Source: Streptomyces sp. NBC_00224
GTDB lineage: Bacteria; Actinomycetota; Actinomycetes; Streptomycetales; Streptomycetaceae
Length of the DNA stretch: 64,000 nt
Reading direction: 5' to 3'
Assembly (NCBI RefSeq): GCF_041435195.1
Contig: NZ_CP108106.1
Location: forward strand, 8,631,001 to 8,695,000
In this document: positions 32,867 through 58,026 of the stretch, one piece after another
Numbering within the stretch: the stretch's first letter is position 1
Layout of the letters: every line of letters begins with the position of its first letter
The notes under the pieces: generated by a model
Told to the model about the DNA's origin: nothing
The model's database searches: none
The model's input: the letters and a program-made list of their open reading frames with translations, nothing else
Translations under genes and position numbers: made by a program

Positions 32867-33079
32867 CTATGCTGTCGCCTGCAACTCTTCGTACTCGGCG
32901 TGAACTTCTGCGGGGGTTCGGTAGCCGAGCGCGGAGCGGAGACGTCTGTGATTGTAGAACATCTCAATGTATCGGACGATCGCCCGGTGAGCATGTGCAC
33001 GCGTGGGGAACGAAGTTCGGTGCACGAGCTCGTTTTTCAGGGCACCGAAGAATGATTCTGCCAGGGCGCAATGCCGTGA
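32867..33079 (-). pseudogene. IS3-family OrfB C-terminal fragment
   Basis: [40 protein letters not shown] and [19 protein letters not shown], ending at the stop. It is the last 70 residues of an IS3 OrfB, fused in frame to the IS1182 fragment upstream. Confidence 0.8.
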
Positions 33080-35881: not shown

Positions 35882-36643
35882 CTACTGGGGGTGGTTGAGC
35901 AGGGTGGTGAATGCGTCGGTGCCTTCGGCCACGCTGTGGCCGAGGGGGGCGTCGAAGTCCCAGATCAGGAAGAGGAGGAAGGCGATGAGGGCGCTGTAGA
36001 GGCCGGCGAGGAGGAGTTCGCGGGGGGTGCGGCGGATCTGGAGGGTGAAGACGAGTCCGATGGCGACGATGGCTCCGGTGATCAGGCCGAACCAGACGAC
36101 GGCGGGCATCGTTGCTCCGGCGCTGGCGCCGCGGGTGGTTCGGGCGGTGTCGACGGCGGCGGCCTGGTCGATGAGGGGCTGGTAGGACTGCATGTCGTGG
36201 TCGTTGCGGGGCTGGTAGGCGGTGAGGTCGGTGCGGAGTGTGGCCAGGAGCTGGTCGCCGTGGTCGGTGAGCTGGCCGGTGCGGAGCATGGTGCGCCATT
36301 CGGTGTCGACGACGTAGTCGGCGTAGGCGGTGACGTCGGTGCGGATCCGGTCGAGGGCGGCGGGTTCGTATACCTGGGCGCGGGTGGTGATTTCGTGCAG
36401 GGCCTGGGCTTCGGCGAGGGTGTTGGCCTGTGCGGAGTTGCGTGCTTCCCATACGCCGGCGATGGCCAGACCGAGGACGATGGCGTAGATCACGCCGATC
36501 ATCATGGTCATGTACTCGATGACGTCGGGGGTTTCGTTCGGGTCGTCGTCCTCGCCGATTCTGCGCTGGCGCCAGATGGTGATGGCGAGGACGACGGCGC
36601 AGACGGCGGCCATGGCCAGACTGAGGGCGATCCATTGGTTCAC
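35882..36643 (-). CDS. DUF4239 (bestrophin-like) membrane protein, left copy
   Basis: 253 residues from GTG 36643, which overlaps the upstream stop as GTGA. Four hydrophobic segments: residues 5-22, 43-63 (MMIGVIYAIVLGLAIAGVWE), about 183-203 (VVWFGLITGAIVAIGLVFTL) and 211-232. A long soluble helical part lies between helices 2 and 3. This is the DUF4239 layout, distantly bestrophin-like; no biochemical function is established to my knowledge. Last gene of the encapsulin-dxs-ispG-prenyl synthase-ispH unit. A second DUF4239 gene ends the opposite arm (50589-51350). Confidence 0.8.
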   Translation of the reverse strand: MNQWIALSLAMAAVCAVVLAITIWRQRRIGEDDDPNETPDVIEYMTMMIGVIYAIVLGLAIAGVWEARNSAQANTLAEAQALHEITTRAQVYEPAALDRIRTDVTAYADYVVDTEWRTMLRTGQLTDHGDQLLATLRTDLTAYQPRNDHDMQSYQPLIDQAAAVDTARTTRGASAGATMPAVVWFGLITGAIVAIGLVFTLQIRRTPRELLLAGLYSALIAFLLFLIWDFDAPLGHSVAEGTDAFTTLLNHPQ

Positions 36644-37363
36644 GTTGTGTTCTCCGGTCGGGTATGGGCTTGGTCAGCGGCTGGATCCCCCCCCGCCGAG
36701 GAACGCGAGCGCAGCGCGGCTGCGGCCAGGACGGCGGGGGCGGTGAGGAGCAGCATGGAGGTGACCGGGGAGGTGCTGCTGTCGGCCTTCTTCTTCGCGA
36801 CGGGCCGGTAGGCGGGAATGCGGCGGGGCGCGGGCGGGGCGGGCTGCGGGCGGGGTGGCGGGGAGGTGGGCGGCCGGTGGCGCAGGGGTGGGAGCCGGTG
36901 CTGCGATGTGGCGGGCGGGCGGTGGCGTGGGGCGGGGCTGGTGGGGCGTTGGAGGGGGTGGAGGCGCGGGGTGCCGGGGGCGGGGCGAGGGTGGGGGTGG
37001 GCAGTTGAGGGTGATCTCGGCTCGGGCGTGGGGGGTGCGGGCCTCGATGTGCCAGCAGCCGTGGGAGGAGGTGATGACCGCGCTGGCGCCGTGGGCTGTG
37101 GCGCTGATGTGCGGATGCGGCGGGTGTGGCCAGGGCGGGGCCCCGTTGGTGGTGTGTGCGGGGGGCGGCATCGGCAGCGGCGGAGGGGGCTGGGTGGGTT
37201 GCGCGGTGGGCTGGGTGCTTGAGCCGGGTGGGGGCAGGGCGTGGGCTGGGATGGACAGGATGAGTGGGGAGATCATGCCGAGCAGGGCGGCGGCAAGGCA
37301 CTGCCTGGTGGAGAGGCTGTGCCGGGCCCGGGAGCGGCGGGAGGGGGGTGGTGGCTGCGGCAT
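36640..37363 (-). CDS. Proline-rich exported, C-terminally membrane-anchored protein with an apparent frameshift
   Basis: From ATG 37363: basic start, hydrophobic signal (AAALLGMISPLILSIPAHA), then a Pro-rich region around a short Cys-containing domain (SATAHGASAVITSSHGCWHI, ITLNC). In the start frame translation ends at 36674 with an Arg/Pro tail. In the frame one base over, the same DNA reads RRIPAYRPVAKKKADSSTSP, a membrane helix (TSMLLLTAPAVLAAAALRSR) and a TGA that overlaps the GTG of the next gene. The second frame is clearly the real C-terminus, so a one-base slip lies in the G/C-rich run between about 36800 and 37000. It may be a sequencing homopolymer error. Function unknown; surface-anchored. 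Confidence 0.5.
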
Positions 37364-37524
37364 GGGATGTTCTCCCTTGTGGTGCGTGTGGCCAAGGCTG
37401 ATCGTGCGGGGTGGGAGGCTGTGAGGCGGGCCGTATCCGTGCCATGCCGCGGGGCATGTGGGAGCGGCGCCGGTGCGCGGTGCTGCGCGGCGGGTGGCGG
37501 TCGGGCGGTGTGCTGCGGGATACG

Positions 37525-38466
37525 TCAGCGGCTCGGGGGCTGGGGCTGGTGGAGTTCGCGTGGTGGTGCGAACCGCTGACCTTCGGTGGCGGCCACGATG
37601 TGTTCGATGTGCCGGTAGCCGTGGCTGTAGAGGTAGCGGCGGATGGCGTCGACGACGTATTCGGGTACGGAGGCTCTGGAGGTCAAACCCACGGTTTCGG
37701 TATCGGTCAGCCATGTTTCGTCGATGTCGTAGTGGCTGTCGACGAGGTGGGCGCGTCGGGCGCCGTGGGCGAGGGCGACTTCGACCAGGCGGGTCGAGTT
37801 GGAAGAGGTCGCCGACCCGGCGACCAGGACCAGGTCGCAGTCGGGGGCCATTTTGCGTACGGCGTGCTGCCGGTTTTGGGTGGCGTAGCAGATGTCGTCG
37901 TTGGGGGGTGCGGAGAGGTGGGGGAAGCGCTGGGTCAGGACAGCGACGGTGCGCAGGGCCTCGTCGACGGAGAGGGTGGTCTGGGAGAGCCAGACCAGCT
38001 TGTTCGTGTCGGGAACAGTAACCGTGCGGGCGTGGTCGGGGCTGGTGACCAGGGTGGTCTGGCTGGGGGCGTGGCCCAGGGTGCCGGTTACTTTTCGTGG
38101 CCTTCGTGGCCGATGAGGAGGATGTGGTAGCCCTCGCTGGCGAAGCGGACGGCTTCCTTATGCACTTTGGCGACCAGCGGGCACGTCGCATCGATGACGT
38201 GGAGGCGGCGGCGGGCGGCTGTGTCGTGGACGGCGGGAGCCACGCCGTGGGCGGACAGGACGACGGTGGCGTTTTTGGGGACGTGGTCGACGTCGTCGAC
38301 GAAGACGGCTCCCCTGCCGCGCAGTTGGTCGACTACGTGGGTGTTGTGGACGATCTCGTGTCGCACGTAGAGCGGTGCCCCGTGGTGTTGCAGGGCGTGT
38401 TCGACGGTTTCGATGGCGCGGTCCACCCCGGCGCAGCAGCCGCGGCGGCGAGAAGCAGGCGTTTCA
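37525..38466 (-). pseudogene. ispH: 4-hydroxy-3-methylbut-2-enyl diphosphate reductase IspH with two apparent frameshifts
   Basis: The last MEP-pathway enzyme: a 4Fe-4S protein reducing HMBPP to IPP and DMAPP. Family blocks present: [106 protein letters not shown]. The ATG at 38466 overlaps the upstream stop (ATGA), but its frame (MKRLLLAA) departs from GCCAG after 8 codons, as if 4 nt were lost. A second break at HEGHEK (near 38088), in an A-run, throws the frame out; the rest continues one frame over to 37525. As written, the Cys ligand in GCCAG and the C-terminal half cannot be in one product. Confidence 0.8.
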
Positions 38467-39549
38467 TGAGATCCTTTGGGTGGCGAGGTGGGCGAGGGTG
38501 CGCAGGGTGTCCAGGGCGGCGGATGCGGCTGGCAGGCGGCTGAGGGCGTGCTCGGCCTGGCGGCTGCGTTGCGTGATCATCTCTTCGACGGTGGTGCGGG
38601 CACCGGTGGCCTCCAGGATGCTGCGGATGCGGGCGGCTGCGCTCTCGTCCAGGTCGCAGCGGCCCACCAGCGCGGTCAGGTGCCGCTGCTGTACGGGGGT
38701 TGCGCGCTGGTGGGCGAGGGCCAGGAGTGCGGTGTGCTTGCCCTCGCGCAGATCATCCAGGGTGGATTTCCCGGTGACCTCCGCATCGCCGAAGACGCCC
38801 AGCAGGTCGTCGCGCAGTTGGAAGGCTTCGCCGATCGGCAGGGCGAAGCGGGCGAGCGCCTGGCAGAACGCGGCATCGGCGCCGGCGAGGACGGCGCCGA
38901 TGTGCAGGGGCCGTTCGACGGTGTATTTGGCTGTCTTGTAGCGGATGACGGCGAGGGCGGCGGTGAGGTCGGCGGGCGGGCCGAGCGGGTTGAGCAGGTC
39001 GAGGTACTGGCCGTAGAGGACCTCTTCGCGCATGGCGGCGACCACGTCCTGCAGGCGGGCCCGGCACGTCTGGGAGAGGGCGGCGGTGCGAAGGAGTTCG
39101 TCGGACCAGGCGTGGGCCGTGTCGCTGATGAGGATGGCCTGGCTGATGCCGAGCCAGCGGCCATCACGGGCGCCGCTTCGGGCGTGCAGCGCGGCCAGGC
39201 GGCAGTGCACGGTGGGCTGGCCGCGGCGCAGGCTGCTCTGGTCGATCACGTCGTCGTGGATGAGGGCGAAGGCGTGGAAGAGTTCGAGGGACGCGGCGAC
39301 CTGGAGCGTCCCGCCCAGCTGTGCCGGGTCTCCTTGGGCTGCGTGGTAGCCGGCCAGGCACAGCTGGGGGCGCAGGCGTTTGCCGCCTGCGGCGAGATAG
39401 CGGGTGAGGGAGTCGGCCACCTCGACGGGCAGCCCGGCCGCGCGGGCCTGGCGGGCCTTGCCTGCGAGAAAGCGGGCCAGGACGTCCTCCACGCGCGCCG
39501 GAACCTCGGCACTGCTCAAAACAGGGGCGGGTACGGGGCGGGGGTTCAT
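38464..39549 (-). CDS. Polyprenyl diphosphate synthase (GGPP/GPP synthase type)
   Basis: 361 residues from ATG 39549, overlapping the ispG stop (ATGA). Trans-type prenyl synthase: [20 protein letters not shown], first Asp-rich motif [35 protein letters not shown], second motif [20 protein letters not shown], and [15 protein letters not shown]. It condenses IPP with allylic diphosphates. An aromatic residue lies five positions before the first motif (HAFALIHDD), so product length cannot be fixed by eye; GPP or GGPP are both possible. In this operon it could feed the 2-MIB methyltransferase. Intact. Polyprenyl synthases are also reported as cargo-type partners of family 2B encapsulins. Confidence 0.88.
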
Positions 39550-40674
39550 GGGGTGCTTTCTGGCGCGGGAGGAGATGCGGTCAGGCGCTGGGCTTCGTCG
39601 AGGAGAGCCTCGACGACCTGGCTCTCGGGGACCGTGTGTACGACGCGGCCGCGGACGAAGATCTGTCCCTTGCCGTTGCCGCAGGAGACGCCCAGATCCG
39701 CCTCGCGGGACTCCCGGACCGTTCACCACGCAGCCCATCACCGCGATCCGCAAGGGGTGTGGGAAGCCGTCGAAGGCGGCTTCGACGCGGGCGGCCATGG
39801 TGTGCAGGTCGACTTGGAGGCGGCCGCAGCCGGGGCAGGAGACGATCTCCAGTTTCCTGGGGCGCAGGCCCAGTGACTGCAGGAGGTGGCTGCCCGCTTT
39901 GACCTGTTCGACCGGGGGTGCGGACAGGGAGACGCGGATGGTGTCGCCGATGCCCTCGGCCAGCAGGATCCCCATGGCGACGGAGGATTTGATGGCTCCC
40001 TGGAAGGCGGGTCCGGCTTCGGTCACCCCCAGGTGCAGGGGGTAGTCGCAGTGGGCGGCCAGCAGGCGGTTGGCGGCGACCATGGTGAGCGGGTCGTGGT
40101 GTTTGACGGCAATCTTGAGATCCGTGAAGCCGTGTTCTTCGAAGAGGCGGCACTCCCACAGGGCGGATTCCACCAGTGCCTGGGGGCTGGCCTGGCCGTA
40201 TTTGGCGAGCAGACGCTCGTCCAGGGAGCCGGCGTTCACGCCGATCCGGATGGGGGTGCCGGTGGCGCTGGCGTGATGGGCGATCGCCTTGACCTGGTCG
40301 TCGAATTTCTTGATGTTGCCGGGGTTGACCCGTACCGCCGCGCAGCCCGCGTCCAGGGCGGCGAACACGTAGCGGGGCTGGAAGTGGATGTCGGCGATCA
40401 CCGGCAGGGGGGACTTTGCCACCAGGGCGGGCAGGGCCGCCGCATCGTCGGCGGAAGGGACGGCGACGCGGATGATGTCGCAGCCCGCGGCGGTCACTTC
40501 GGCGATCTGCCGCAAGGTGGCGTCCACGTTGGCGGTCACGGTGGTGGTCATGGTCTGCACGCTGATGGGAGCGCCGTCGCCTACCGGCACCGGCCCCACG
40601 TTCAGGCGGCGCGAGGCACGGCGGGCGGCGGGCAGCGTCACGGCGGGCAGGGGCGGGGGAAGGTTGGACCTCAC
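39546..40674 (-). pseudogene. ispG: 4-hydroxy-3-methylbut-2-en-1-yl diphosphate synthase IspG with an apparent 3' frameshift
   Basis: GTG 40674 overlaps the dxs stop as GTGA. The TIM-barrel half is intact: [87 protein letters not shown]. The Fe-S domain has [10 protein letters not shown] and [10 protein letters not shown], the three cluster Cys. Directly after NGPG, near 39723, the frame shifts by a net 2-nt loss (three G where five are expected): the expected [20 protein letters not shown] continues in another frame to a TGA at 39546. The shift removes the Glu that normally follows NGPG and reads through into the downstream synthase in frame. Either a decaying gene or an assembly indel. Confidence 0.85.
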
Positions 40675-42530
40675 GTGCTCTCCTGGGAAGGGGAAGCCGG
40701 GGCTGCGGCAGGCCGGCCCGGCAGCGACTGGATCAGGCGCCGCACGCTGCGCGCGATGCCGGCCGCGTCGAGGCCCGCGTGGGCGAGCAGCTCCGGGCGG
40801 GACCCGGCGGGCAAAAACGCAGGGGGCAGGCCCAGGACACGGACGGGCACCTGCACCCCGCGCTCGTGCAGGATCTGCAGGATGCGGCTGCCGATCCCGC
40901 CTGGGCCCAGGCCGTCTTCCACCGTCACCACGCACCGGTGCCGCTCGGCCAGCGCAACGACCGCCTCCGGAACGGGATGAACCCACCGCAGGTCAACGAC
41001 GGTGGCACCCAGCTGGTCTGCTTCCACCAGCTGGGCGGCGGACACTGCGTCCGGGGCCAGCGCGCCGAGCGCGATCAGCAGCACATCGTGCGCGCCATGG
41101 GCGCTGCGGTGCAGGATGTCGACCCCTCCCACGTGGTCGACTGCCTCCAGCGGCGCGCTCGCGGTGGCCTTGGGCAGGCGCAGCAGCGTCGGCGCATTGG
41201 TGGTGACCGCCTCGCGCAGCAGCTCGCGCAGCCGGACCGCATCCCGGGGGGCGGCGATCCGCAGTCCGGGAACGGCTGCGAACAGGGCCAGGTCCCACAT
41301 CCCATGGTGGGAGGGCCCATCCGGCCCGGTCACACCGGCGCGGTCGGCGACGAAGGTGACCGGCAGCCGGTGCAGGGCCACATCCATCAGTACCTGGTCA
41401 ACGGCCCGGCTCAAGAACGTCGAGTACACGGCGACCACCGGGTGCAGCCCGCCCATCGCCAGGCCCGCCGCACAGGTCACCGCATGCTGCTCGGCGATAC
41501 CGACATCGAAGACCCGCTCCGGGAACGCTGCCGCCATCGCGTCCAGGCCGGTCGGCTCCAGCATCCCGGCCGTCACCCCCACCACCTCCGGCCGCTCGGC
41601 GGCCAGCTCCAGCAGATACTGGGCGAAGTGCCGCGTCCACGACGGCGCCACCTGTGCGCCCACCGATGCCGGCGGCCGGCCTGTGTGCGGGTCGGTGACT
41701 CCCACCGCGTGCAGGCAGTCCCGCTCATCTGCTTGCGCCGGGCCGAAACCACGGCCCTTGACGGTCTTGGCGTGGACGATGACCGGCCGGCCCATGTCCC
41801 GCGCCTGGCGCAGCACCTGCTCCACCGCCGGCAGGTCGTGGCCGTCAACGGGGCCCAGATAGGCAAGACCCAGCTCCGCAAACACATTGGGATACCGGCT
41901 CTGACCTGCCTCCAGCCCGGCCAGATGACCGGCCAGGGCTCCGCACGTCGGCGCATAGGAACGCCCGTTGTCGTTGACGACGATCACGACGGGCAACGAC
42001 CGGGCCGTCCACGCCCCCAGGCTGTTGAGCGCCTCGAAAGCCATGCCCCCGCCCAGCGCCCCGTCGCCGATCACCGCCACCACCCGGCGATCCGCCTGAC
42101 CTGAGAGCTGGTAGGCCCGGGCAAGTCCTTGTGCATACGAGAGGGAGGTGGAGGCATGGGAGTTCTCCACCACATCATGTTCGGATTCCCCCCGTGCCGG
42201 ATACCCCGACAGTCCCCCTGCCTGGCGCAACCGGTCGAAGGCGGCTGCGCGGCCGGTCAGCATCTTGTGGATGTAGGCCTGGTGGCCGATGTCGAAGACC
42301 AGGGCGTCGCGGGGAGATTTGAAGACCCGGTGCAGGGCCAGCGTCAGTTCGACCACACCCAGGTTGGACCCCATATGTCCCCCGCGCGCGCAGACCTTCT
42401 CCACGAGCAGCGAGCGCAGCGCCTGGGCCAGGTCGGCCGTCTCAGCGACGGTCAGCCGGCGTAAGGCGTCCAGTGAGGGCACCAGGCCGTCGGGGTCTGG
42501 AGCGTGGGTGGGAGAGGGGGGTGCACTCAC
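40671..42530 (-). CDS. dxs: 1-deoxy-D-xylulose-5-phosphate synthase
   Basis: 619 residues from GTG 42530 (AAGGA upstream). First step of the MEP pathway: pyruvate plus glyceraldehyde 3-phosphate to DXP, thiamine diphosphate dependent. Motifs: [36 protein letters not shown], the ThDP-binding [17 protein letters not shown] with VVNDNG, the catalytic Glu region [20 protein letters not shown], and [20 protein letters not shown] in the transketolase middle domain. No breaks. A second, pathway-dedicated dxs is common in terpenoid clusters. 153 bp downstream of the encapsulin stop and followed by ispG with a 4-bp overlap. Confidence 0.95.
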
Positions 42531-42683
42531 GAGAGTCCTTGTCGGCGAGAATCCAGGGCCAACCGGCACGGAAGTGTGCCGCCGGCACAAAGGTGACGCG
42601 GGCGGGCCCGGCCTCCCGGCGAGGGGGGCGCTGCCTGGATGGTCGAGGCAGTCACCGCGGAGGCCGGGACCGCGTCTGCGGGG

Positions 42684-44099
42684 TCAGCGCCAGCGGCTGA
42701 CCTCGACGTTCTCCAGCACACCCAGCGCGTCGGGCACGAGGATGGCGGCGGAGTAGTAGGCGGTAACGAGGTAGGAGATGATCGCCTGCTCGTCGATGCC
42801 CATGAACCGCACCGACAGGCTCGGCTCGATCTCGTCCGGGATACCGCCCTGGCGCAGCCCGATGACGCCCTGCTCATCCTCACCCGTACGCATACAGATG
42901 ATGGACGTGGTACGCGCGGGACTGAGGGGGATCTTCCCGCAGGGGAAGATGGGCACACCGCGCCAGGCAGGGATGCGGTGCCCGTCGAAGTCAAGCGACT
43001 CCGGCACCAGTCCCCGCTTGTTGCACTCGCGGCCGAACGCGGCGATCGCCTTGGGATGGGCGAGGAAGAGCTTGCTGCCCCGGCGCCGGGAGAGCAGCTC
43101 GTCCATGTCGTCCGGGCTGGGCACCCCGTCATGGGGCTGGAGCCGCTGCTCGTAGTCGCAGTTGGCCAGCAGACCGAACTCACGGTTGTTGACGAGCTCG
43201 TCCTCCTGGCGCTCGCGCAGCGCCTCCACGGTGAGCCGCAACTGCTGCTCGGTCTGGTTCATCGGCTGGTTGTAGAGGTCCGCGACCCTGCTGTGGACCT
43301 TCAGGACCGTCTGCGCGACGGAGAGTTCGTACTGGCGCGGGGCGCCCTCGTAGTCCACATACGTGTGCGGGATGACCGCCTCGCCGACGTGGCCGGCGGC
43401 CAGGTCGATCGCCGCCTCGCCATACTTGTTGGTGCGCTGGTCGGGCACGAGGGAGTACGCCGTCAGGTGCTCCCCCAGCCCGGGCGCCCGCTCGGCCAGG
43501 TTGAGCACGTCCGCCCGGCTGAGCACCAGGACCGTACACGCCGTCGCCGCCCGGGCCGTGGCGTCCCAGGTCGCCTCGTCCGACACCAGCGCGTGCTCAC
43601 CCAGCTGCGCCCCGTCCGCCAGCACACCGAGCACCGCCTCGTCCCCGTAGGGGCCGGTGCCGATCAGCTGGATACGCCCGTGGGCCAGCAGATACACCGC
43701 ATCCACCGGATCACCGGACGCCGCCAGAACCTCCCCGGCGGCAAACTCCCGCTGCACGCACCGCGCGGCCAGCTCCTCCAGCACCGTCTCGTCCGCGAAC
43801 CCGCGCAGCGCGGGCAGCTCCCCTAGCTCGGCTGGGATGACGGCGACCCGCTCGCCGGTCTGCACAAAGGTGATCTTCCCGTCACCCACCGAATAGCTCA
43901 GTCGCCGGTTGACCCGGTACGTACCGCCCTGCACCTGCACCCATGGCAGCATCCGCAGCAGCCACCGGGAGGTGATCTCCTGCATCTGCGGGACGGACTT
44001 GGTGGTGGTCGCCAGATTCCGCGCCGCAGCCGTACCAAGACTCTGCTGAGCCTGGCCGGCGCGGCCTTCCTGAGTTTCTGAATCTGTATGAATGGACAC
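42684..44099 (-). CDS. Family 2B encapsulin shell protein with cyclic-nucleotide-binding insertion
   Basis: 471 residues, GTG start at 44099. Residues about 92-212 form a CRP-type cNMP-binding domain ([60 protein letters not shown]). It is embedded near the N-terminus of an HK97-fold shell protein: N-arm with [20 protein letters not shown], then [58 protein letters not shown] and the C-terminal [20 protein letters not shown]. Such proteins, often annotated as Crp/Fnr regulators, lack a DNA-binding helix and assemble icosahedral compartments. In streptomycetes they are encoded beside 2-MIB synthase, their cargo. Here the gene heads the MEP operon, divergent from the 2-MIB genes. No breaks. Confidence 0.88.
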
Positions 44100-44415
44100 C
44101 TGACACCTTTCGCGTCATCGGGATAAGCGCCTTCTCCAGGCTTACAGCAGAATCGATAAACCTGCGATGACACGATCGGGTGACGAGAGGCCCTGATGGA
44201 ATCGAAAACAACTGAATGGCTCTTGAAGTGAATCGTCTCGTTCGCATGTGTATTCTCGGGCGGGAGAGTTCACGTCGGAATTCGCTCCCCGTCGCCTCCT
44301 TTTTTGCGACGGCGTACGCTGGCGCTAAAAGAGAGAGGGGTGGGTACGGCTTCGCCACGCGAATTCCGTGGGCAGTCGAGCACCCGGGGAAGTCCATGAC
44401 CAGGACACGGCAGCA
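44100..44415 (-). promoter_or_regulatory. Encapsulin leader region, left copy
   Basis: About 315 bp upstream of the encapsulin start, repeated in inverted orientation at 46731-47051 with few differences and no gaps over the last 240 bp. It contains a CCGTCGC/GCGACGG stem (44289-44312) whose 10-nt loop displays AAGGAG on the coding strand. A small open frame (44273-44142, 43 codons) ends ...SSPDRVIAGLSILL. The 50 bp around 44130-44180 are identical in both copies. Likely a shared promoter and leader; the mechanism is unknown. Confidence 0.6.
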
Positions 44416-45085
44416 ACACACACCCGTCGGGAGCGGCGGCACTGCTGGCGGTGAGAGGGGCATCGCAATCGCAGGGCAGCGGGCCACCGAGCCTGACCGA
44501 CCGTGACGCCGCCGTGGCGGCGAACCGTTGAGGCCCCGCACGCCACTGGCCCAGCGAACAAAGCCGGAGCATCTTCTCCACTGCCTCCATCACTGATGCC
44601 CCTCCTGACGTCGTCTGGCCCGCAGCCATCACCGCGGAGACAGGCCCGTCGCGGCTGCGAGGAAACGCCACCGCTGTTGCGCGACACCCGCCTGCTCCCG
44701 GCGAACTGGTGCACGACGCGGGCGTGCGGACAGCTGACTCGAGCGCACAAGACCGGGGCGTTCCCCACGCCGGAACGACGCGATGGGTTGGGAGATCCAG
44801 GCGAGGAGGCAGCTGCACCCGCCCACGCCAGGTTCCGCCGCCGGGTGCCACATCAGCCCCGGAGAACGGGAAGCTTTTCAGCACCCGCCGCCGAGGGCCG
44901 CTCACCCCTGCCCCGACTGACCCCACTGGAGCGCGTCGCCGCATCATGGGCTCCCTCTGACCTGCGAAACCACCAGAGACCCGCATCTGGACACCAACCT
45001 AGTTGTCGTATTTACGCGGGAATGTCTTCAGGGGAGAGCATCCGGAGTGCGGGCAGCGGAAGGCTGAGCGGTGCGCGTCGGCCGC
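44416..45085. other. Spacer of about 670 bp, no gene recognised
   Basis: Frames are open because of GC bias but show no motifs. It lies between the left leader copy and the left end of an IS relic, so it is either the original intergenic DNA between the two arms or IS debris. Confidence 0.35.
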
Positions 45086-46726
45086 CTCAGCTTGTCCTTT
45101 ATGGTCCGGACTCGAGCGTGTTTCACACGTGAGTGGGGTTTGTCCAGATCAGGGCACGTGGGAACGGCCTTCCGCTGATGCTGTGCTCCGTCACAGATAC
45201 ACCGCTCAGCAGGAAGGCCGTAGGGATGAGTGTGCCGTGTGTGGGTGTTCCGCAGGATGCGCTTGGGCAACTGTCATGCTTCCGGGCGGACTTCTACGGC
45301 TGCTTGACCGGACGTGCGGACGCCTTGTTCGAGCTGACCGACGCGCTGCTGTGCGCGGACGGGCCGGTGAAGACACTGGTCGGACTCGCCCTTGCACCCG
45401 AGCACCGGCGTGGGCACGGCGCGTTGTACGGCACGTTGTACGGCGCTCTCAGCCAGGGCCGTATCGAGGTCGCCCGGCTGCGGCGAGTGCTGGCCTCGGT
45501 GCCACTGCCGCGGGCGGCCGACGGCCGTCTGGTCCTGGCCGTGGACGTCTCGCCGTGGCTGCGGCCCGACGCCGCCACCAGCGATGCCCGCTCGTTCTGC
45601 CATACCTACGGCCGGGGCGAGAACAAGCACCTGATGATCCCGGGGTGGCCCTGCTCGTGGATCGTTGCCCTGGAGACGGGCCGTTCCTCGTGGACCGCGC
45701 CCCTGGACGCCGTGCGGCTGCGGCCGGGCGACGACCTCGCCGCCGTGACCGCCCACCAAGTGCGAGATCTGATCGGACGCCTGATCACAGCAGGCCAGTG
45801 GCATGAGGGCGACCCACTGGTGTGGATTGTGGTCGACGCCGGCTACGACGTGATGCGCCTGTCCTACCTTCTGCGGGACCTCCCCGTCGAACTCCTCGGA
45901 CGTCTCCGCTCAGACCGGGTCATGCGCCGCCCGGCGCCCTCCCGCAAGGAGTACTACCTCGCCCATCCCCAGGGTGGCCACCCGCCTCGGCACGGCAGCG
46001 AATTCATCTTCAAGGACGCCCGAACCTGGGGCGCCCCTGACGCGGAGACGAAGACCGCCACCACCCGCTACGGCACCGCCCACGCCCAGGGCTAGGGCCG
46101 GCTCCACCCCGAACTGCAACAGCGTGCCGCCTGGCGGGACCACCCCGGCAAGCTCCCCGTCATCGAGGGCACCGTGATCCGCCTCCAGGTCGACCACCTG
46201 CCCAGCGGCGGCGACCCCAAGGCCCTGTGGCTGTGGTGGTCACGGCCCGCGGCCGCTCCGGCGGATGCCGACCTGGCCTGGCAGGCGTTCCTGAGAAGGT
46301 TCGACATCGAGCACTTCTTCAGGATGATCGAGCAGACCCTCGGCTGGACCGCTCCGAAACTGTGCGCTCCAGAAGCCGCGGACAACTGGACCTGGTTGAT
46401 CATCGCTGCCTACACGCAGCTCCGCCTCGCCCGCCCCCTGGCCGTCGACCTGCGACGCCCCTGGGAACGACCCGTCCCCTCGAACAAACTCACGCCCGCC
46501 CGGGTCCGGCGCGGGTTCCGACACCTGCGCGCCAAGACCTCAACGCCGGCCGGAGCGCCCAAACCCTCCCGGCCCGGCCCCGGATGCCCACCCGGCTCGA
46601 AGAACCACCACCCCGCCGAACGCTACGACGTGGGCCTGCTCCTGGTCACCGGCACACTTCACCGCCGACCGACCCACCACAAGATCGGTACCAAACCACG
46701 CCGCACCGGATAAACGACAAGCTCAG
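45086..46726 (+). mobile_element. IS4-like element between the two encapsulin leaders
   Basis: Imperfect terminal inverted repeats: CTCAGCTTGTCCTTTATGG from 45086 and, inverted, CTGAGCTTGTCGTTTATCC ending 46726. It carries one transposase gene with an in-frame stop. The right end directly abuts the right leader copy. No clear target duplication. Confidence 0.65.
45226..46713 (+). pseudogene. IS4-like (DDE) transposase with in-frame TAG
   Basis: From ATG 45226: LSCFRADFYGCLTGRADALF, LAPEHRRGHGALYGTLYGAL, VLAVDVSPWLRPDAATSDAR (first Asp), VWIVVDAGYDVMRLSYLLRD (second Asp), then TAG at 46093-46095. The frame continues unbroken with DIEHFFRMIEQTLGWTAPKL (Glu) and ends at 46713. The family is a large Streptomyces transposase group with this RADALFEL start. 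One nonsense mutation only, so a recent loss. Confidence 0.8.
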
Positions 46727-46730
46727 GGCG

Positions 46731-47051
46731 TGTGTTGCTACCGTGTCCCGGTCACGGACTTCCCCGGGGTGCTCGACTGCCCGCGGAATTCGTGTGGCGA
46801 GGCCGTACCCACCCCTCTCTCTTTTAGCGCCAGCGTACGCCGTCGCAAAAAGGAGGCGACGCAGAGTGAATGCCGACGCGAGCCTTCCCGCCCACGAATT
46901 CACACGGAAACGATGCGATACATTTCAGGTGTCATTCGACTGTTTTCGATTCCATCAGGACCGCTCGTCACCCGATCGTGTCATCGCAGGTTTATCGATT
47001 CTGCTGTAAGCCTGGAAAAGGCGCTTATACCAGTGACGCGAAAGGCGTCAG
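46731..47051 (+). promoter_or_regulatory. Encapsulin leader region, right copy
   Basis: Inverted copy of 44100-44415. Stem CGTCGC/GCGACG at 46841-46861 with AAGGAG in the loop. A small open frame from GTG 46866 to TAA 47009 ends with the same SSPDRVIAGLSILL. It leads directly into the start codon of the ruined second encapsulin gene. Confidence 0.6.
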
Positions 47052-47280
47052 GTGTCCATTCACGCACAGACTCACAGCGGGTGATCCGATGGATACGGAG
47101 CATCTCCTCAACCACAGCCGCCTCGTCCGGGCCGGTGCCGGCCCTCCGAGAGGCGAGGCGGAGCTGCGCATTCTGGCAAACGGGGCACACCCCGGCGAGC
47201 AGTCGCTGGTCACCGGGAATGCCGGGCAGGAGCCGACAGTGCGGGCGGCGACCACCAGCACGGTAGGGGTACAGAGCTGA
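47052..47280 (+). pseudogene. Remnant of a second family 2B encapsulin gene
   Basis: Begins GTG TCC ATT CA exactly like the intact gene (VSIHAQTHSG, then TGA). After a short unrelated stretch, residues equivalent to 139-194 of the intact protein follow: HSRLVRAGAGPPRGEAELRI aligns with [20 protein letters not shown], then LANGAHPGEQSLVTG, RAATTSTVGVQS and a stop. Roughly residues 10-138 and everything after 194 are missing. It lies in the position where encapsulin genes usually precede 2-MIB synthase. Confidence 0.75.
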
Positions 47281-48036
47281 CCGGGTGTCACCACCACCGG
47301 GCAGCGCAGGCGGCCGTATGCGTCGGCCCGCGCTTCGACTGCCGCGTCGGGGGGACGGCCATCCCCGAGACCCAGGTCGTGTCCGCCATCACACGGCGGG
47401 ATCCCCGCCCACCGACGTCAGCCCCGATGGGGGAAATCGGCTCCGGCCAGCGGCTCTCGGCCTGGCGCTTCAGACCAGGCGACCTGTGGCTCGCATGCCC
47501 CCTGCATGTGGGACGCACGACAAACCCGAAGGAGCCAGGATCACCGTACCGACGCACACGTGACGCAGGATGTCGCCGCTTGAGCACGCCACCGCCCCTC
47601 GCCCTGCTCCTGGATCGGGAGTGCTCCCTCATGTCGTGTACTGCCTCTGTCATGCGGTCATGGGCCCGTACGCGCACCACCGCCCTGGAGGAAAGAGACG
47701 ACTGAAGGACCCAGAACACCAGCCCGCAGATCCATCAGGATCGACACGCGCATACCATCCCCACCACGACTGCTGCCTCAAACCCGGCAACCACCAACCC
47801 AATACCCCTCGCCGATGGAGAAGTCCGGTCTTCGCTCGCTGTCTCGGCGATTGACGGTGCGTCTGCTTCCGCCCCCAGCCGAGGCCACCGCGGATCCACG
47901 CATACGCAGTGCGCCTGCCCCACCTGCTGGGCGGCCCGTTCCCGGCGTGCGAGACAGCACGCCACACACAAAGGCCCGGGCCCTCCCGGGCGTAGTGAGC
48001 CTGCGCACACAGCGCGCCCCACCCAAGGAGTCATGG
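47281..48036. other. Spacer upstream of 2-MIB synthase, no gene recognised
   Basis: About 750 bp, the place where the rest of the second encapsulin gene would be expected. No shell-protein sequence can be read in any frame. The AAGGAG at 48025-48030 belongs to the next gene. Confidence 0.4.
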
Positions 48037-49350
48037 ATGTCCTTCCCCGCCCCCTTTCCCGTGCCGTCGACACCGGCCCCGCATAGCGCGGCAGAAGCTG
48101 AGGCTGCCGCGCCGGTTGAAGCCGACAGTCGAAGCGAGCCCGTTTCACCACCCACCCAGGGCCCTCTCCAAGGGGGTGACACCTTGCGCTCCTCGATGCC
48201 GGGCCAGACTGACATCACGGTCCTGCAGGAGGGGCGAGATCGGAGTGATCCGGGCATGAATCCCGACGCCCTGGAACGCCTCCTGCGGAGCCCCAGCGGA
48301 CTCGGCACGACAAGCCTGCACCTGGCGCGACGCACGCAGCCGCCAACGCCGTGCCGGGAGATCCCCGGCCTCTACTACCACCCCGTGCCCGAGCTCGACG
48401 AAGTGCGGGTGACAGAGGTCAGCCGAAGGATCAAGGACTGGGCGGTGAACGAGGTCGAACTGTATCCACCGGAGTGGGAGGACCAGTTCGACGGACTCTC
48501 GCTGGGCCGCTACATGGTCGCCTGCCACCCCGACGCCCCCACCATCGACCACCTGATGATCGCCACGCGCCTGATGGCCGCGGAGAACGCGGTCGACGAC
48601 TGCTACTGCGAGGACCACGGGGGTACGCCGGTGGGCCTCGGTGGACGCCTTCTGTTGGCACACACCGCTCTCGATCCGCTGCACACCACGCAGGAATACC
48701 AGGCGCCTTGGGCCCAGTTGCTCCACAGTGACGCTCCGCGGCGGGCCTACCGCTCGGCCATGGACTACTTCCTCCAAGCCGCCCGTGCCTCCCAGGCGGA
48801 CCGGTTGCGGCACGACATGGCCCGTCTGCACCTGGGATACCTCGCCGAGGCCGCGTGGGCCGAGACGGACACCGTTCCCGAGGTGTGGGAGTACCTGGCA
48901 ATGCGCCAGTTCAACAACTTCCGGCCCTGTCCCACCATCACCGACACCATCGGCGGCTACGAACTGCCCGCCGACCTCCACGCCCAGCCGGCCATGCAAC
49001 GGGTCATCGCGCTCGCCTCCAACGCCACCACCATCGTCAACGACCTCTACTCCTACACCAAGGAACTCACCAGCCCCGACCGGCACCTGAACCTGCCCGT
49101 GGTACTCGCCGAGCGCGAAAACCTCGACGAGCGCGAGGCCTACCTCAAAGGCGTCGAGATCCACAACGACCTCATGCGCACCTTCGAAGCCGAGGCCGCC
49201 GCCCTGGCCTTCGCCTGCCCCGTCCCGCAGGTGACCCGCTTCCTGCGCGGCGTGGCCGCGTGGGTCGACGGCAACCACCACTGGCACCAGACCAACACCT
49301 ACCGCTACAGCCTGCCCGATTTCTGGCACGAACAAGGAGCCCCACAGTGA
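48037..49350 (+). CDS. 2-methylisoborneol synthase (class I terpene cyclase)
   Basis: 437 residues from ATG 48037 (AAGGAG 6 bp upstream; the ATG at 48033 is out of frame). It cyclises 2-methyl-GPP to 2-MIB, the earthy odorant. The metal-binding motif DDCYCED lies at 187-193 and the NSE motif NDLYSYTKE at 336-344; also YMVACHPDAPTIDHLMIATR and FNNFRPCPTITDTIGGYELP. This is the pattern of the S. coelicolor enzyme. The first 105 residues are Pro/Ala/Ser-rich and disordered except for ALERLLRSPSGLGTTSLHL (79-97), a block also kept in that enzyme and a good candidate for shell targeting. The methyltransferase follows with a GTGA overlap. Confidence 0.95.
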   Translation: MSFPAPFPVPSTPAPHSAAEAEAAAPVEADSRSEPVSPPTQGPLQGGDTLRSSMPGQTDITVLQEGRDRSDPGMNPDALERLLRSPSGLGTTSLHLARRTQPPTPCREIPGLYYHPVPELDEVRVTEVSRRIKDWAVNEVELYPPEWEDQFDGLSLGRYMVACHPDAPTIDHLMIATRLMAAENAVDDCYCEDHGGTPVGLGGRLLLAHTALDPLHTTQEYQAPWAQLLHSDAPRRAYRSAMDYFLQAARASQADRLRHDMARLHLGYLAEAAWAETDTVPEVWEYLAMRQFNNFRPCPTITDTIGGYELPADLHAQPAMQRVIALASNATTIVNDLYSYTKELTSPDRHLNLPVVLAERENLDEREAYLKGVEIHNDLMRTFEAEAAALAFACPVPQVTRFLRGVAAWVDGNHHWHQTNTYRYSLPDFWHEQGAPQ

Positions 49351-50225
49351 ACGCAACAGCCGAATCCACCACCGGTAGCGCAGCCATCCCCGGCCCGGCA
49401 ACGCCCTACCAGGAAGACATCGCCAACTACTGGAACCACGAAGCCAGGCCGGTCAACCTGCGCCTCGGCGACGTCGACGGCCTCTACCACCACCACTACG
49501 GCATCGGAGCCGTCAACCACACAGCGCTCGGCGACCCCCACGACAGCGACCGCGAACAACGGCTCGTCGCCGAGCTGCACCACCTGGAGTCCGCCCAGGC
49601 CACCCTGCTCCTGGACCACCTCGGCCCGATCCAGCCCGACGCTACACTGGTGGACGCTGGCTGCGGCCGCGGCGGCACGATGGTCATGGCCCACCAGCGC
49701 TTCGCCTGCACCGTCGAAGGCGTCACCCTCTCCACCAAGCAGGCCGACTTCGCCAACCAGCGCGCCAGCGAGCTCCACATCGACGCCTTCGTCCGCGCTC
49801 ATGTCTGCAACATGCTCGCCATGCCCTTCACCAGCGGGAAGGTGACGGCCTCGTGGAACAACGAGTCAAGCATGTACGTCGACCTGCACGACCTCTTCGC
49901 CGAACACGCCCGCATCCTCACCGTCGGTGGCCGGTACGTGACCATCACCGGCTGCTGGAACCCTGTCTACGGCCAGCCCTCCAAGTGGGTGTCCCAGATC
50001 AACGCCCACTTCGAATGCAACATCCACTCACGCCGCGACTACCTGCGGGCCATGGCCGACAACCGCCTCGTCCCCCAGACCGTCACCGACCTCACACCCC
50101 AGACCCTGCCCTACTGGGAACTGCGCGCCACCACATCCCTGACCACCGGCATCGAAGAGGCCTTCCTCAACTCCTACCAGGACGGCAGCTTCCAGTACCT
50201 CCTCATCGCCGCCGACCGCGTCTGA
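49347..50225 (+). CDS. Geranyl diphosphate 2-C-methyltransferase
   Basis: 292 residues from GTG 49347, overlapping the synthase stop by 4 bp. SAM-dependent: motif I LVDAGCGRGG at 101-110, then FACTVEGVTLSTKQADFANQ, MLAMPFTSGKVTASWNNESS and YVDLHDLFAEHARILTVGGR. The N-terminal YWNHEARPVNLRLGDVDGLY and HHHYGIG are typical of GPP methyltransferases. It makes 2-methyl-GPP, the substrate of the preceding cyclase. Intact. Confidence 0.95.
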   Translation: MNATAESTTGSAAIPGPATPYQEDIANYWNHEARPVNLRLGDVDGLYHHHYGIGAVNHTALGDPHDSDREQRLVAELHHLESAQATLLLDHLGPIQPDATLVDAGCGRGGTMVMAHQRFACTVEGVTLSTKQADFANQRASELHIDAFVRAHVCNMLAMPFTSGKVTASWNNESSMYVDLHDLFAEHARILTVGGRYVTITGCWNPVYGQPSKWVSQINAHFECNIHSRRDYLRAMADNRLVPQTVTDLTPQTLPYWELRATTSLTTGIEEAFLNSYQDGSFQYLLIAADRV

Positions 50226-50588
50226 CCACCGCGAACATCAGCCGGCGCGCGGCCAGCGTGGGAACTGCCAATCGTGCGGGGAACCCCCGGCCGACAACAG
50301 TGCACAGACAACCATCGTCCGAGCGGGGCGACGTGCGCATGACCGCAGCAGGAGCAGGCCTGCCGCCGCATTGGAGCCAAAGAAGGCCGGGGTATCCCGG
50401 CATCGGCGCGACGCGAGGGCTGTGTCAGTACCGGTGCGCAGGTGGCTGAGTGGACCTGCATGATGCGGCTCTCTCCCAGCCTGGACCTGGTGTCGCGCTA
50501 GGCCCTGCCCTGCCCCCCGCCGCCCAGGCAAGAGACCGCTCCGCTGCGTTCGGCCGTTCGAACCCGCCACCGCAATTGGGGAGGGGCT
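50226..50588. other. Intergenic spacer, no gene recognised
   Basis: About 360 bp between the methyltransferase and the DUF4239 gene on the same strand. No strong terminator was recognised, so read-through is possible. Confidence 0.35.
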
Positions 50589-51350
50589 ATGCCCGTGCTC
50601 GGAGTCGTGCTACTCATCGCCGTAGCCGCAGCGGCCACCGCTGCCGTCTACGGCCTTGCCCGGGTCATTCCGGCCTCATCCCGCAAAAGGCACAATGAGG
50701 TTCTCGGGTTCGTGTACGCGGAGATCGGCGTGATCTACGCCGTAGTCCTTGCCATGGTCGTCGTGGGCGTCTGGGACACCCGCTCCCACGAGCACGCCAA
50801 CACCTATACCGAGACCAACGCCTTGCTCCAGATCTCCTGGTACGCCCGATCCCTTCCGCAGCCCGACCGCACCACCCTCATCCAGCGCACCGAGGCTTAC
50901 ACCACCACCGTCATCCACCACGAATGGCCACTGCTTGCAGAGGGCAAAGACAGCCCCACGGCATGGACCCTCTTCACTGATCTGCGTGACTTCATCAACA
51001 CCCGACAGCCCACCAGCGGCGCCGACCAGGCACGCTATCAAGTCGTCCTCGAAGCCGTCGGACAACTCGGTGACGCACGCAGGGAGCGCGTCAACGAAGC
51101 CGCCACCGCCGGAGTGCCCGTACTGCTCTGGGCAGCACTGCTACTCGGAGCCCTGATGACCGTCGGCTTCATCTACCTCTTCGAAGTCGGCAGTCTCCGC
51201 GTCCAAGCCTGCGCGGCCTGCGCACTCACCCTCACCGTCGGCGTCATGCTCCTGATCGTCTACCAGTTCAACTACCCCTTCAGCGGCGCACTGAAAATCC
51301 AACCCACCGCCTTCCAGCTCGCCCTACAAAGGATCGAAGCCATAGGCTGA
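50589..51350 (+). CDS. DUF4239 membrane protein, right copy
   Basis: 253 residues from ATG 50589 behind GGGGAGGGG. Same length and topology as the left copy: hydrophobic segments at residues 4-26, 44-62 (IGVIYAVVLAMVVVGVWDTR), about 177-197 (VPVLLWAALLLGALMTVGFI) and 207-228, with a helical soluble part between helices 2 and 3. Shared core: GVIYA-VL--VV-GVW--R---A-T--E. Moderately divergent from the left copy, so an old paralogue. Confidence 0.8.
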   Translation: MPVLGVVLLIAVAAAATAAVYGLARVIPASSRKRHNEVLGFVYAEIGVIYAVVLAMVVVGVWDTRSHEHANTYTETNALLQISWYARSLPQPDRTTLIQRTEAYTTTVIHHEWPLLAEGKDSPTAWTLFTDLRDFINTRQPTSGADQARYQVVLEAVGQLGDARRERVNEAATAGVPVLLWAALLLGALMTVGFIYLFEVGSLRVQACAACALTLTVGVMLLIVYQFNYPFSGALKIQPTAFQLALQRIEAIG

Positions 51351-51830: not shown

Positions 51831-53594
51831 AATTTAACTACTGCCGGATTCGGGTAAGTGGCTCGATTTTATGTGGTAGTTGGGCTGTTGTGATGATTCC
51901 AGATGAAGTCCTGGCGATACTGGATGTGAAGTTCGCGGTGGTGCTGCCGCACCTGGACGAGCGGCAGCGTCGTCTGTATCTGGCGTCCGAGGCCGAGGCG
52001 CTGGGCCATGGCGGGAGCACGGCCGTGGCCCGGGTGGCGGAGGTCTCGGAGTCGACCATCGCGCGAGGGCGTGGGGAACTCGCGGATGGCGCGGAGTCGC
52101 TGGGGCGAGTGCGCAGGCCCGGCGGTGGACGCAAGTCCGCCGCCGAACGTGACCCTGGTCTGGTGGCGGCTCTCGAGCTGTTGATCGAGCCGCGTGAGCT
52201 GGGTGATCCGGTATCCCCGCTGCGTTGGACCACTGCCTCGCTGCGGGACCTGTCCCGGGAGCTGAACGACGCCGGGCATCCTGTCAGTGTCCCGGTGGTC
52301 GGTGGTCTACTGCGGTCGATGGGGTTCAGTCTGCGGGGCATGGCCAAGACCCGGGCCGGCAGTCAGGTGCCCGACCGGGACGCCCAGTTCCGTCACATCA
52401 ACGCCGCCGCTGAGCGTTTCCTGGCCGAAGGGATGCCGGTGGTCAGCGTGGACGCGAAACAGAAGGAGCCGATCGGCGACTTTGCCCGCCCCGGCCGCAC
52501 CTACCGGCCCAGAGGCAAGCCGATCACCGCCCCTGACCACGACTTCATCGACTCCGACACTCCGGTCGCAATCCCGTACGGCATCTATGAACTGGGGCGC
52601 GACAGCGGCTGGGTGAACGTGGGTACCGACCGCAACACCGCCGCGTTCGCGGTGGAGTCCCCGCACCGTTGGTGGAAGGCCCAGGGAATCCTCGACTACC
52701 CCGGCGCGGACCGCCTGCTGGTCACCGCCGATGCCGGAGGAGCCAACTCGGCCGACTCCCGCCTGTTCAAAATGGGGCTGGCCGGCCTCGCCGACGAGTG
52801 CGGCCTGAGTATCACCGTCATGCACTTCCCGCCGGGAACTTCAAAATGGAACAAAGTGGAACATCGGCTGTTCTCCCGGATCACCCACAGCCTGCGTGGC
52901 GAGCCCCTGACCAGCTACGAAGTACTGCTGGAGACCATTTCCGCTACCCGCACCACCACCGGACTGACCGTCAAGGCGATGCTGGACGAGAACAGCTACC
53001 CCACCGGCCGCGTGCTCTCCCGGGCCGAACGCAAGAGCGCCGACCGGCGCGTCGAACGCGAGGAATTCCACGGCGAGTGGAACTACACCATCGTCCCGCA
53101 GAGCCCTGACCAGCAGCTTGCGGCGGTGCCCTACGACGAGTCGGGACCGCCGGTTCCGGCCGAGGCCACCTTCCTCCTCACCCACCCCGCCCTGACCGGG
53201 CTGACACGCGAGGTATTCGACGAGCTCGTCCTTCAACTCGAACCGTGCCGTCAGGCCCTGGCCGAGACCCAGCGGCAAAGGGAGGGACGCGACCGGCGTG
53301 GCCGCAACCCCGGCTTCGGCATCCTCGACCACCGTCACCGCGTCCTGGTCGCCCTGCTCAGAAGCCGCAACACCGTCACCCTGACTCTGATGGGCAAGAT
53401 CCTCGGCCGCGACCGCAACACGCTGAGCTACCACGCCATGACCAGCAGGCCGCTACTGGCCTTCGCCGGAAACGACCTCACCCCGACCCTCACCCCACGG
53501 ACCCACCCGCCCCGCACACTCGAAGCCCTGAAAAGCGTGATCGAACACCACGACAACGAGATCAAACCCAGCAGTAGTTAAATTTCGGCTCCTC
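51823..53594 (+). mobile_element. ISAzo13-family element, copy 2 (intact)
   Basis: Inverted repeats GGAGCCGTAATTTAACTACT (51823) and, inverted, GGAGCCGAAATTTAACTACT (53592), with TGA directly repeated at 51820-51822 and 53595-53597. Inserted at the orfA/orfB junction of IS3 copy C. Confidence 0.85.
51890..53581 (+). CDS. ISAzo13-family transposase
   Basis: 563 residues, unbroken. N-terminal VVLPHLDERQRRLYLASEAE and HGGSTAVARVAEVSESTIAR (HTH), GDPVSPLRWTTASLRDLSRE. Core: VVSVDAKQKEPIGDF (first Asp), IPYGIYELGRDSGWVNVGTD, DRLLVTADAGGAN (second Asp), FPPGTSKWNKVEHRLFSRI (Glu). C-terminal HTH-like end VTLTLMGKILGRDRNTLSYH. Probably active. Confidence 0.92.
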   Translation: MMIPDEVLAILDVKFAVVLPHLDERQRRLYLASEAEALGHGGSTAVARVAEVSESTIARGRGELADGAESLGRVRRPGGGRKSAAERDPGLVAALELLIEPRELGDPVSPLRWTTASLRDLSRELNDAGHPVSVPVVGGLLRSMGFSLRGMAKTRAGSQVPDRDAQFRHINAAAERFLAEGMPVVSVDAKQKEPIGDFARPGRTYRPRGKPITAPDHDFIDSDTPVAIPYGIYELGRDSGWVNVGTDRNTAAFAVESPHRWWKAQGILDYPGADRLLVTADAGGANSADSRLFKMGLAGLADECGLSITVMHFPPGTSKWNKVEHRLFSRITHSLRGEPLTSYEVLLETISATRTTTGLTVKAMLDENSYPTGRVLSRAERKSADRRVEREEFHGEWNYTIVPQSPDQQLAAVPYDESGPPVPAEATFLLTHPALTGLTREVFDELVLQLEPCRQALAETQRQREGRDRRGRNPGFGILDHRHRVLVALLRSRNTVTLTLMGKILGRDRNTLSYHAMTSRPLLAFAGNDLTPTLTPRTHPPRTLEALKSVIEHHDNEIKPSSS

Positions 53595-53596
53595 TG

Positions 53597-57763: not shown

Positions 57764-58026
57764 CACTGCCGCTCCGTTCCGTGCTGACCAGCGTCTCGTT
57801 GGTCCTTGGAACACTCCGCAGCAGGCCCTTAACCAGCGATGACCGCAGATCTCAATCAGCAACACAGAGCGTCCCGGAGGACCAGGTGGCCATTCAACGA
57901 AAGCCACAACAACGGCAGCCGGGCATCAGCCATGCCTGGTCCTCCCGGACCGCTGCCATTGTCCAGCAGTGTGGTATCAGCCGTGCCTGGTCCTCCCGAA
58001 CCACTACTGATTCTTAAGGGTGTGGT

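What the first reader, a model, noticed from the sequence alone, without database searches (positions are those of the whole stretch)
35882..51350. Encapsulin shell gene heading an operon of MEP enzymes, divergent from its 2-MIB cargo genes
Seen: a family 2B encapsulin with cNMP domain, then dxs, ispG, prenyl synthase, ispH, a proline-rich surface protein and DUF4239 on one strand, with 4-bp overlaps at most junctions from dxs onward. On the other strand lie 2-MIB synthase, GPP methyltransferase and DUF4239. Known: family 2B encapsulins package 2-MIB synthase in streptomycetes. Inference: here the shell is co-expressed with a dedicated precursor supply (first and last MEP steps plus prenyl condensation), making a self-contained odorant organelle locus. 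I do not know of a described locus joining the shell to dxs/ispG/ispH in one operon.
Basis: partly seen in the sequence, partly recalled or inferred. Interest (0 to 1): 0.9.

Follow-up and report, generated by a model that had tools for sequence, protein, structure and literature searches.

The report
Decaying encapsulin and isoprenoid gene cluster
A Streptomyces region that looks like a self-supplied protein shell for making an earthy odorant appears to be a decaying patchwork with broken supply genes, but a similar design is found largely intact in a set of Nonomuraea genomes.

Summary
The named genes are present on the stated strands, but the reading changes. ispG (frameshift near 39713) and ispH (broken near its start and near 38092) look like pseudogenes; a separate 6,852-bp contig carries the same ispG break. 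dxs shows signs of relaxed constraint, the shell gene does not. The shell at 42684-44099 is not of the 2-MIB type: it nests with this genome's own prenyl-synthase-linked shell. The 2-MIB genes once had their own shell copy, now a remnant at 47063-47307 behind an inverted duplicate of the same 337-bp leader. No encapsulin match lies in the held flanks of 25 other Streptomyces cassette loci.

So this is an eroded composite rather than a working supply operon. The idea itself holds elsewhere: 16 loci in 15 of 54 Nonomuraea genomes join encapsulin, a geosmin-type cyclase, a prenyl synthase and dxs, with ispH in 15 and ispG in 14; 12 of 16 show all six genes whole. Print (PMC8346489) says PT encapsulin systems often carry terpenoid-precursor genes.

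The parts
35882..36643 (-). Bestrophin-like (DUF4239) membrane protein gene
   Evidence: PF14023 170.9 bits
36674..37363 (-). proline-rich ORF, no NCBIfam match; function unknown
37525..38467 (-). ispH pseudogene: frame broken between 38467 and 38444 and at about 38092
   Evidence: PF02401 in two frames; 4 of 4 relatives switch frame at 38091-38094; sequence
38464..39549 (-). polyprenyl diphosphate synthase, intact coding region, short N-terminus; now in frame with the shifted ispG
   Evidence: PF00348; under all NCBIfam cut-offs listed
39564..40674 (-). ispG pseudogene: GTG 40674, frame break at about 39713; the last 50 or so residues are in another frame
   Evidence: same fused frame on a 6,852-bp contig
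40671..42530 (-). dxs, cassette type; GTG start with AAGGA before it; open, signs of relaxed constraint
   Evidence: TIGR00204 548.5 > 465.95; start; 14 private changes against 0-5 in 17 other rows
42531..42683 (-). 153-nt gap between encapsulin and dxs with a long GC-rich hairpin
   Evidence: 42525-42690 folds at -81.5 kcal/mol, z -2.12, 4 of 200 shuffles as good
42684..44099 (-). family 2B encapsulin shell gene of the PT-linked clade, intact
   Evidence: NF041163 755.8 > 400; tree 100/100 with own L008 copy and G168 copy
44089..44425 (-). leader upstream of the encapsulin (copy A)
   Evidence: inverted repeats I1-I3, 86-96%
45133..46713 (+). DDE transposase frame interrupted by a stop at 46095, between the two leaders
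   Evidence: PF13546 on 45133-46092; frames
46726..47062 (+). leader copy B, inverted duplicate of copy A
   Evidence: 87% match; no third copy among the matches listed for 392 genomes
47063..47307 (+). second encapsulin, remnant (start plus part of cNMP domain, stop inside)
   Evidence: 47% aa identity to residues 138-215 of the L008 query; alignment
48034..49350 (+). 2-MIB-synthase-type terpene cyclase with SPSGLGT tag-like motif at 48289
   Evidence: NF041167 481.8 > 400; motif
49335..50225 (+). geranyl diphosphate 2-C-methyltransferase
   Evidence: NF041943 463.3 > 400
50589..51350 (+). Bestrophin-like (DUF4239) gene after the methyltransferase
   Evidence: PF14023 201 bits

Best explanation
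The region is a decaying composite. An extra copy of the PT-linked family 2B shell gene came to lie, with its leader, in two inverted copies. One heads a secondary-metabolism MEP cassette (dxs-ispG-PT-ispH), the other headed a 2-MIB operon (cyclase, GPP methyltransferase, bestrophin-like protein); an insertion element lies between them. The shell copy facing 2-MIB is now a remnant, ispG and ispH are frameshifted, dxs seems to be drifting. What can still work: the cyclase and methyltransferase make 2-MIB from GPP supplied by the chromosomal MEP genes; the cyclase carries a near-consensus loading motif and may be packed by the intact shell here or by the shell of the other 2-MIB operon at 8.35 Mb. 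Shown: gene content, frames, relationships, duplication. Inferred: order of events, present activity, packing.
For: ispG and ispH of the window each match their Pfam profile in two frames, while the copies elsewhere in the genome (2 ispG, 1 ispH) are unbroken; frame switches confirmed with relatives; the same IspG-PT fused ORF, 100% identical across the break, on a 6,852-bp contig. DXS has 14 private changes at otherwise invariant columns against 0-5 in 17 other rows, the shell 1 against at most 4 in 30; DXS end branch 0.81, the longest, median 0.23. The shell nests with own L008 and G168 copies, 100/100; a PT of the L008 kind lies near the shell in 27 of 29 other loci of that clade. Inverted leaders, remnant shell. 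Other encapsulin-cyclase-methyltransferase operon at L006 with GPTGLGT motif. dN/dS of the shell against L008 0.19 by NG86.
Against: Shell, dxs, PT, cyclase and methyltransferase are still open, and dxs keeps 204 of 218 otherwise invariant columns, so recent function of part of the cassette is possible; private changes also rise simply because the window has no close kin in that alignment. The fused ORF could still give active PT. The 6,852-bp contig may be another assembly of the same isolate. Split or partial cassette genes also appear in 4 of 25 other Streptomyces loci (L059 ispG, L064 dxs, L065 dxs, L066 dxs and ispH), so such breaks are not special to this locus, or draft errors add to them. 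The joined locus may have worked before it decayed.
Confidence: 0.85

Rival explanations
1. One reading: a working self-contained odorant organelle, the shell co-expressed with dedicated precursor supply for encapsulated 2-MIB synthase.
For: Co-location; shell, dxs, PT, cyclase and methyltransferase open; the same idea is found in Nonomuraea; a dxs-ispG-PT-ispH-cyclase-methyltransferase row in Longispora albida without a shell in the flank.
Against: ispG and ispH broken; shell of the PT-linked clade; hairpin in the encapsulin-dxs gap; no encapsulin match at 25 other Streptomyces cassette loci.
Confidence: 0.05
2. The frame breaks are sequencing errors and the locus is intact.
For: Three breaks within about 1.7 kb; split or partial genes also in 4 of 25 other cassette loci.
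Against: ispG break repeated on a second contig; the other own-genome copies found (4 encapsulins, 2 ispG, 1 ispH, 2 dxs) match in one piece without stops; dxs signs of relaxation; remnant shell and interrupted transposase next door. The ispH breaks were not checked on a second contig.
Confidence: 0.04
3. Pure accident: the cassette belonged to another terpenoid pathway and was thrown next to shell and 2-MIB genes by insertion elements; they never worked together.
For: Transposase genes across the window; cassette DXS groups with 18 Streptomyces rows, SH-aLRT 99, that show no encapsulin match in their held flanks.
Against: The two operons share a duplicated leader and both end in a bestrophin-like gene; shell plus MEP recurs elsewhere.
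Confidence: 0.4

Closest known systems
Family 2B encapsulin PT systems (Andreas and Giessen 2021, PMC8346489)
   Same: Shell clade; the paper says PT systems often encode terpenoid-precursor genes, and that 165 systems have both TC and PT (passages)
   Different: Here the clade's own PT is absent and the PT present scores under the cargo-PT cut-off; MEP genes are partly pseudogenes
Encapsulin, 2-MIB-type cyclase, GPP methyltransferase operon (L006 in this genome)
   Same: Same cyclase and methyltransferase, 80% and 78% aa identity; tag-like motif
   Different: The shell copy beside them is a remnant; motif reads SPSGLGT, not GPTGLGT
Secondary MEP cassette dxs-ispG-PT-ispH of Streptomyces
   Same: Gene order and DXS clade
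   Different: No encapsulin match in the held flanks of 25 other loci; 4 of these 25 also show split or partial genes
Nonomuraea encapsulin-cyclase-MEP locus found here (L136, L140, L233-L246)
   Same: Shell, terpene cyclase, PT, ispH, dxs, ispG together
   Different: Largely intact, geosmin-type cyclase, divergent layout, separate DXS clade
Two-component family 2B operons (Dutcher 2025, PMC12407261; abstract, introduction and section 2.1 read)
   Same: Two shell genes within 10 kb once existed
   Different: One is a remnant here

Membership tests
Family 2B encapsulin shell | SrpI-like HK97-fold domain with cNMP domain inserted; NF041163 cut-off | tested here: met
   PF19307 447.4 bits, PF00027 66.9 bits; NF041163 755.8 > 400
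Family 2B encapsulin shell | assembles and packs cargo | not testable with these tools
   needs expression and microscopy
2-MIB encapsulin operon | cyclase and GPP methyltransferase over curated cut-offs | tested here: met
   NF041167 481.8 > 400; NF041943 463.3 > 400
2-MIB encapsulin operon | GPTGLGT-type loading motif in the cyclase N-terminus | tested here: inconclusive
   SPSGLGT at 48289; L006 copy has GPTGLGT
2-MIB encapsulin operon | intact shell gene upstream on the same strand | tested here: not met
   remnant only, 47063-47307
PT encapsulin system | shell in the PT-linked clade | tested here: met
   tree 100/100; PT near it in 27 of 29 other loci
PT encapsulin system | cargo PT: NF041169 cut-off and N-terminal domain of 50-100 residues | tested here: not met
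   244.2 < 450; match to solved synthases starts at residue 15
Dedicated MEP supply | intact dxs, ispG, ispH | tested here: not met
   dxs met; ispG and ispH broken
Two-component family 2B operon | two intact shell genes within 10 kb | tested here: not met
   second is a remnant

The most novel reading that the evidence does not exclude
Actinobacteria have recruited a MEP cassette (dxs, ispG, ispH plus a prenyl synthase) to encapsulin terpene-cyclase loci several times independently, giving compartments with their own precursor supply. Nonomuraea keeps a largely intact geosmin-type version (15 of 54 genomes); Kibdelosporangium has a shell-shell-PT-ispH-dxs-ispG row; the window is a decayed Streptomyces case around 2-MIB.
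Probability: 0.55. Interest if true: 0.7.

Novelty: new variant of a known kind. Interest (0 to 1): 0.45.

Why it matters
It corrects a tempting reading of this window and points to a better test case. It also suggests that shell genes are copied and re-paired with other cargo operons in Streptomyces.

Tried and rejected
Consensus scan of 42300-44700 gave no promoter-like site and one terminator-like site at 44580, none in the encapsulin-dxs gap; it covers only sigma-70-like promoters and T-tailed terminators. Product of the PT: best model is a mycobacterial FPP/GPP synthase at 252.6 bits, far under its cut-off of 600; nearest solved chains are named a GGPP and an FPP synthase; product left open. 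YN00 dN/dS failed; NG86 values are given. In one search my Nonomuraea PT query was out of frame; one search repeats it in frame, and only one search counts are used. In one search the PT row of L057 (27 private changes) is probably another PT and is left out. Single-piece coverage is a weak test of intactness near gene ends: window ispG itself passes it at 0.93. No structure was predicted.
Full report
What is there. The window lies at 8.631-8.695 Mb of an 8.91-Mb contig in a 9.18-Mb genome of 3 contigs. The genus is Streptomyces by inference: contigs of same-genus genomes have the lengths of named Streptomyces records. On the minus strand run encapsulin (42684-44099), dxs (GTG 42530 to 40671), ispG (from GTG 40674), a polyprenyl synthase (39549-38464), ispH (from ATG 38467), a proline-rich ORF and a bestrophin-like gene; on the plus strand a 2-MIB-type cyclase, a GPP C-methyltransferase and a second bestrophin-like gene. 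Over their curated cut-offs: encapsulin family 2B, DXS, family 2 cargo terpene cyclase, GPP methyltransferase, and the ispG 5' part.

What is broken. In the own genome, ispH of the window matches PF02401 as two pieces in different frames and ispG matches PF04551 as two pieces; the other copies (1 ispH, 2 ispG) match in one piece. Relatives aligned by tblastn switch frame in the window at about 39713 for ispG (2 of 3 queries; the third, L073, ends at the break) and at 38091-38094 for ispH (4 of 4), and the ispH ATG that overlaps PT is out of frame with the ispH body. The shifted ispG frame is open into PT, an 840-aa ORF. A protein on a 6,852-bp contig is 100% identical to this ORF over 88% of the query, break included, so the ispG break is not private to this assembly. 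The ispH breaks were not checked in a second source. The lost part of ispG begins at the GPGE motif, whose Glu I recall as an iron-sulphur ligand (recalled, no call).

How constrained is the rest. At columns invariant in all other rows, window DXS deviates at 14 sites, the 17 other cassette rows at 0-5; IspG 5' part 7 against 0-5 in 16 others; PT 3 against 0-3 in 13 others (L057 left out); the encapsulin 1, with at most 4 in the 30 other rows of its clade. Rows with close kin in the alignment score lower by construction, so this is a hint, not proof. Window DXS has the longest end branch, 0.81, median 0.23. Shell against the own L008 copy: dN 0.075, dS 0.390.

Whose shell is it. The genome has five family 2 shell genes: L006 and L007 beside methyltransferase and cyclase matches, L008 beside a PT match, L009 with a downstream ORF I took for a cysteine desulfurase by eye (no family call), and the window. 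In a tree of 43 rows (one Kibdelosporangium gene is in twice) the window groups with L008 and the G168 copy, 100/100, closest to G168 (99/93). The 29 other same-genus rows are the best of 156 genomes with a match; in 27 of 29 a PT of the L008 kind lies within the 1.5-kb flank. I believe this is the EshA clade; that name is recalled. Identity to the 2-MIB-linked L006 shell is 64%.

Second shell and leader. A 337-bp leader directly upstream of the shell (44089-44425) has an inverted copy at 46726-47062, 86-96% alike, followed by a remnant with the shell start, part of its cNMP domain and a stop. Between them lies a DDE transposase frame with a stop. In 392 genomes searched with leader plus shell start, the listed matches outside this genome cover only the coding end (the list was cut and two candidates were scored per genome). 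So each operon seems to have had its own shell head with a shared leader.

Encapsulin-dxs junction. The gap is 153 nt; 42525-42690 folds at -81.5 kcal/mol (shuffles -72.4, sd 4.3; 4 of 200 as good). No consensus promoter or terminator in it. Co-transcription is undecided.

Is the order found elsewhere. Of 199 genus genomes (own included) 12 others hold a match to window DXS of 530 bits or more, 14 places, most but not all full length. In these 14 neighbourhoods (L053-L066) there is ispG in 13, and no encapsulin match. Adding 11 named Streptomyces loci (L067-L075, L084, L093; L068 is the same locus as L054), no encapsulin match in 25 of 25 held flanks, some short; 4 of 25 show split or partial cassette genes (L059, L064, L065, L066). 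Of 80 genome-contig loci, 3 have an encapsulin match within the held flank: Kibdelosporangium banguiense (Enc Enc PT ispH dxs ispG), Nonomuraea solani and Nonomuraea sp. PA05. In the DXS tree (quick method) the window falls with 18 Streptomyces cassette rows (SH-aLRT 99); Nonomuraea DXS forms its own clade (100) and Kibdelosporangium lies elsewhere. This suggests that the encapsulin link arose more than once.

The Nonomuraea locus. L140-type DXS (E <= 1e-200) occurs in 15 of 54 genomes, 16 places, two of them near-identical in one genome; encapsulins occur in 53 of 54. In 16 of 16 places encapsulin, two-domain cyclase, PT and dxs lie together; ispH in 15, ispG in 14, two shells in 12; a GP[ST]GLG motif in 14 (none in L242, cut by the contig end, and L246). 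All six genes match in one piece, coverage 0.93 or more and no stop, in 12 of 16 loci; the exceptions are L136 (ispG split), L240 (a stop in the cyclase match, no ispG), L242 (cyclase cut by the edge) and L246 (a stop in the cyclase match, no ispH, no ispG). The second shell has a stop in three loci (G410 and both of G445). Six of the 16 cyclases were scored: 1042-1160 bits on NF041168, under its cut-off of 1200, so 'geosmin-type' is by likeness. The L140 PT scores 265.9 on NF041169, under 450, like the window PT. In Longispora albida dxs-ispG-PT-ispH-cyclase-methyltransferase lie in a row, the last two over cut-off, without an encapsulin match in the flank or a tag motif.

What is in print. 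PMC8346489 (passages): 904 TC and 900 PT family 2B systems, 165 with both; [quoted passage not shown] GPTGLGT motifs in cyclases; N-terminal domains of 50-100 residues in PTs. PMC12407261 (outline with abstract, introduction, section 2.1): two-component shells, 503 operons. Encapsulin with Nonomuraea: 0 papers; with methylerythritol: 2, about engineering by title; listings show no title on an encapsulin-dxs-ispG-ispH locus. Only those two papers were opened and supplements were not readable, so such loci may be listed there.

Verdict. Observation partly confirmed; interpretation partly supported as a theme, not for this locus.

Noticed in passing
L136, L140, L233-L246: Recurring Nonomuraea locus joining encapsulin(s), two-domain cyclase with tag motif, PT, ispH and divergent dxs-ispG.
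   Followed up: partly
L076:10001-16773: Longispora albida row dxs-ispG-PT-ispH-2-MIB-type cyclase-GPP methyltransferase without encapsulin match in the flank or tag motif.
   Followed up: partly
window 40671-42530: DXS of the window leaves out about 40 profile positions (192-233 of PF13292) that the two main DXS copies match.
   Followed up: no
window 22487-24675, 29061-30068, 32867-34378, 53582-54367, 56558-57925, 58135-59655: Transposase genes with IS21, IS3, DDE_Tnp_1, IS110 and ISAzo13-type domains: an insertion-rich stretch about 217 kb from the contig end.
   Followed up: partly
L059, L064, L065, L066: Split or partial dxs, ispG or ispH matches in other Streptomyces cassettes: decay or draft errors.
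   Followed up: partly
L009:8738-11726: Family 2 shell followed by an ORF that looks like a cysteine desulfurase in the same genome (by eye).
   Followed up: no
window 36674-37363: Proline-rich ORF between ispH and the bestrophin-like gene, no NCBIfam match.
   Followed up: no
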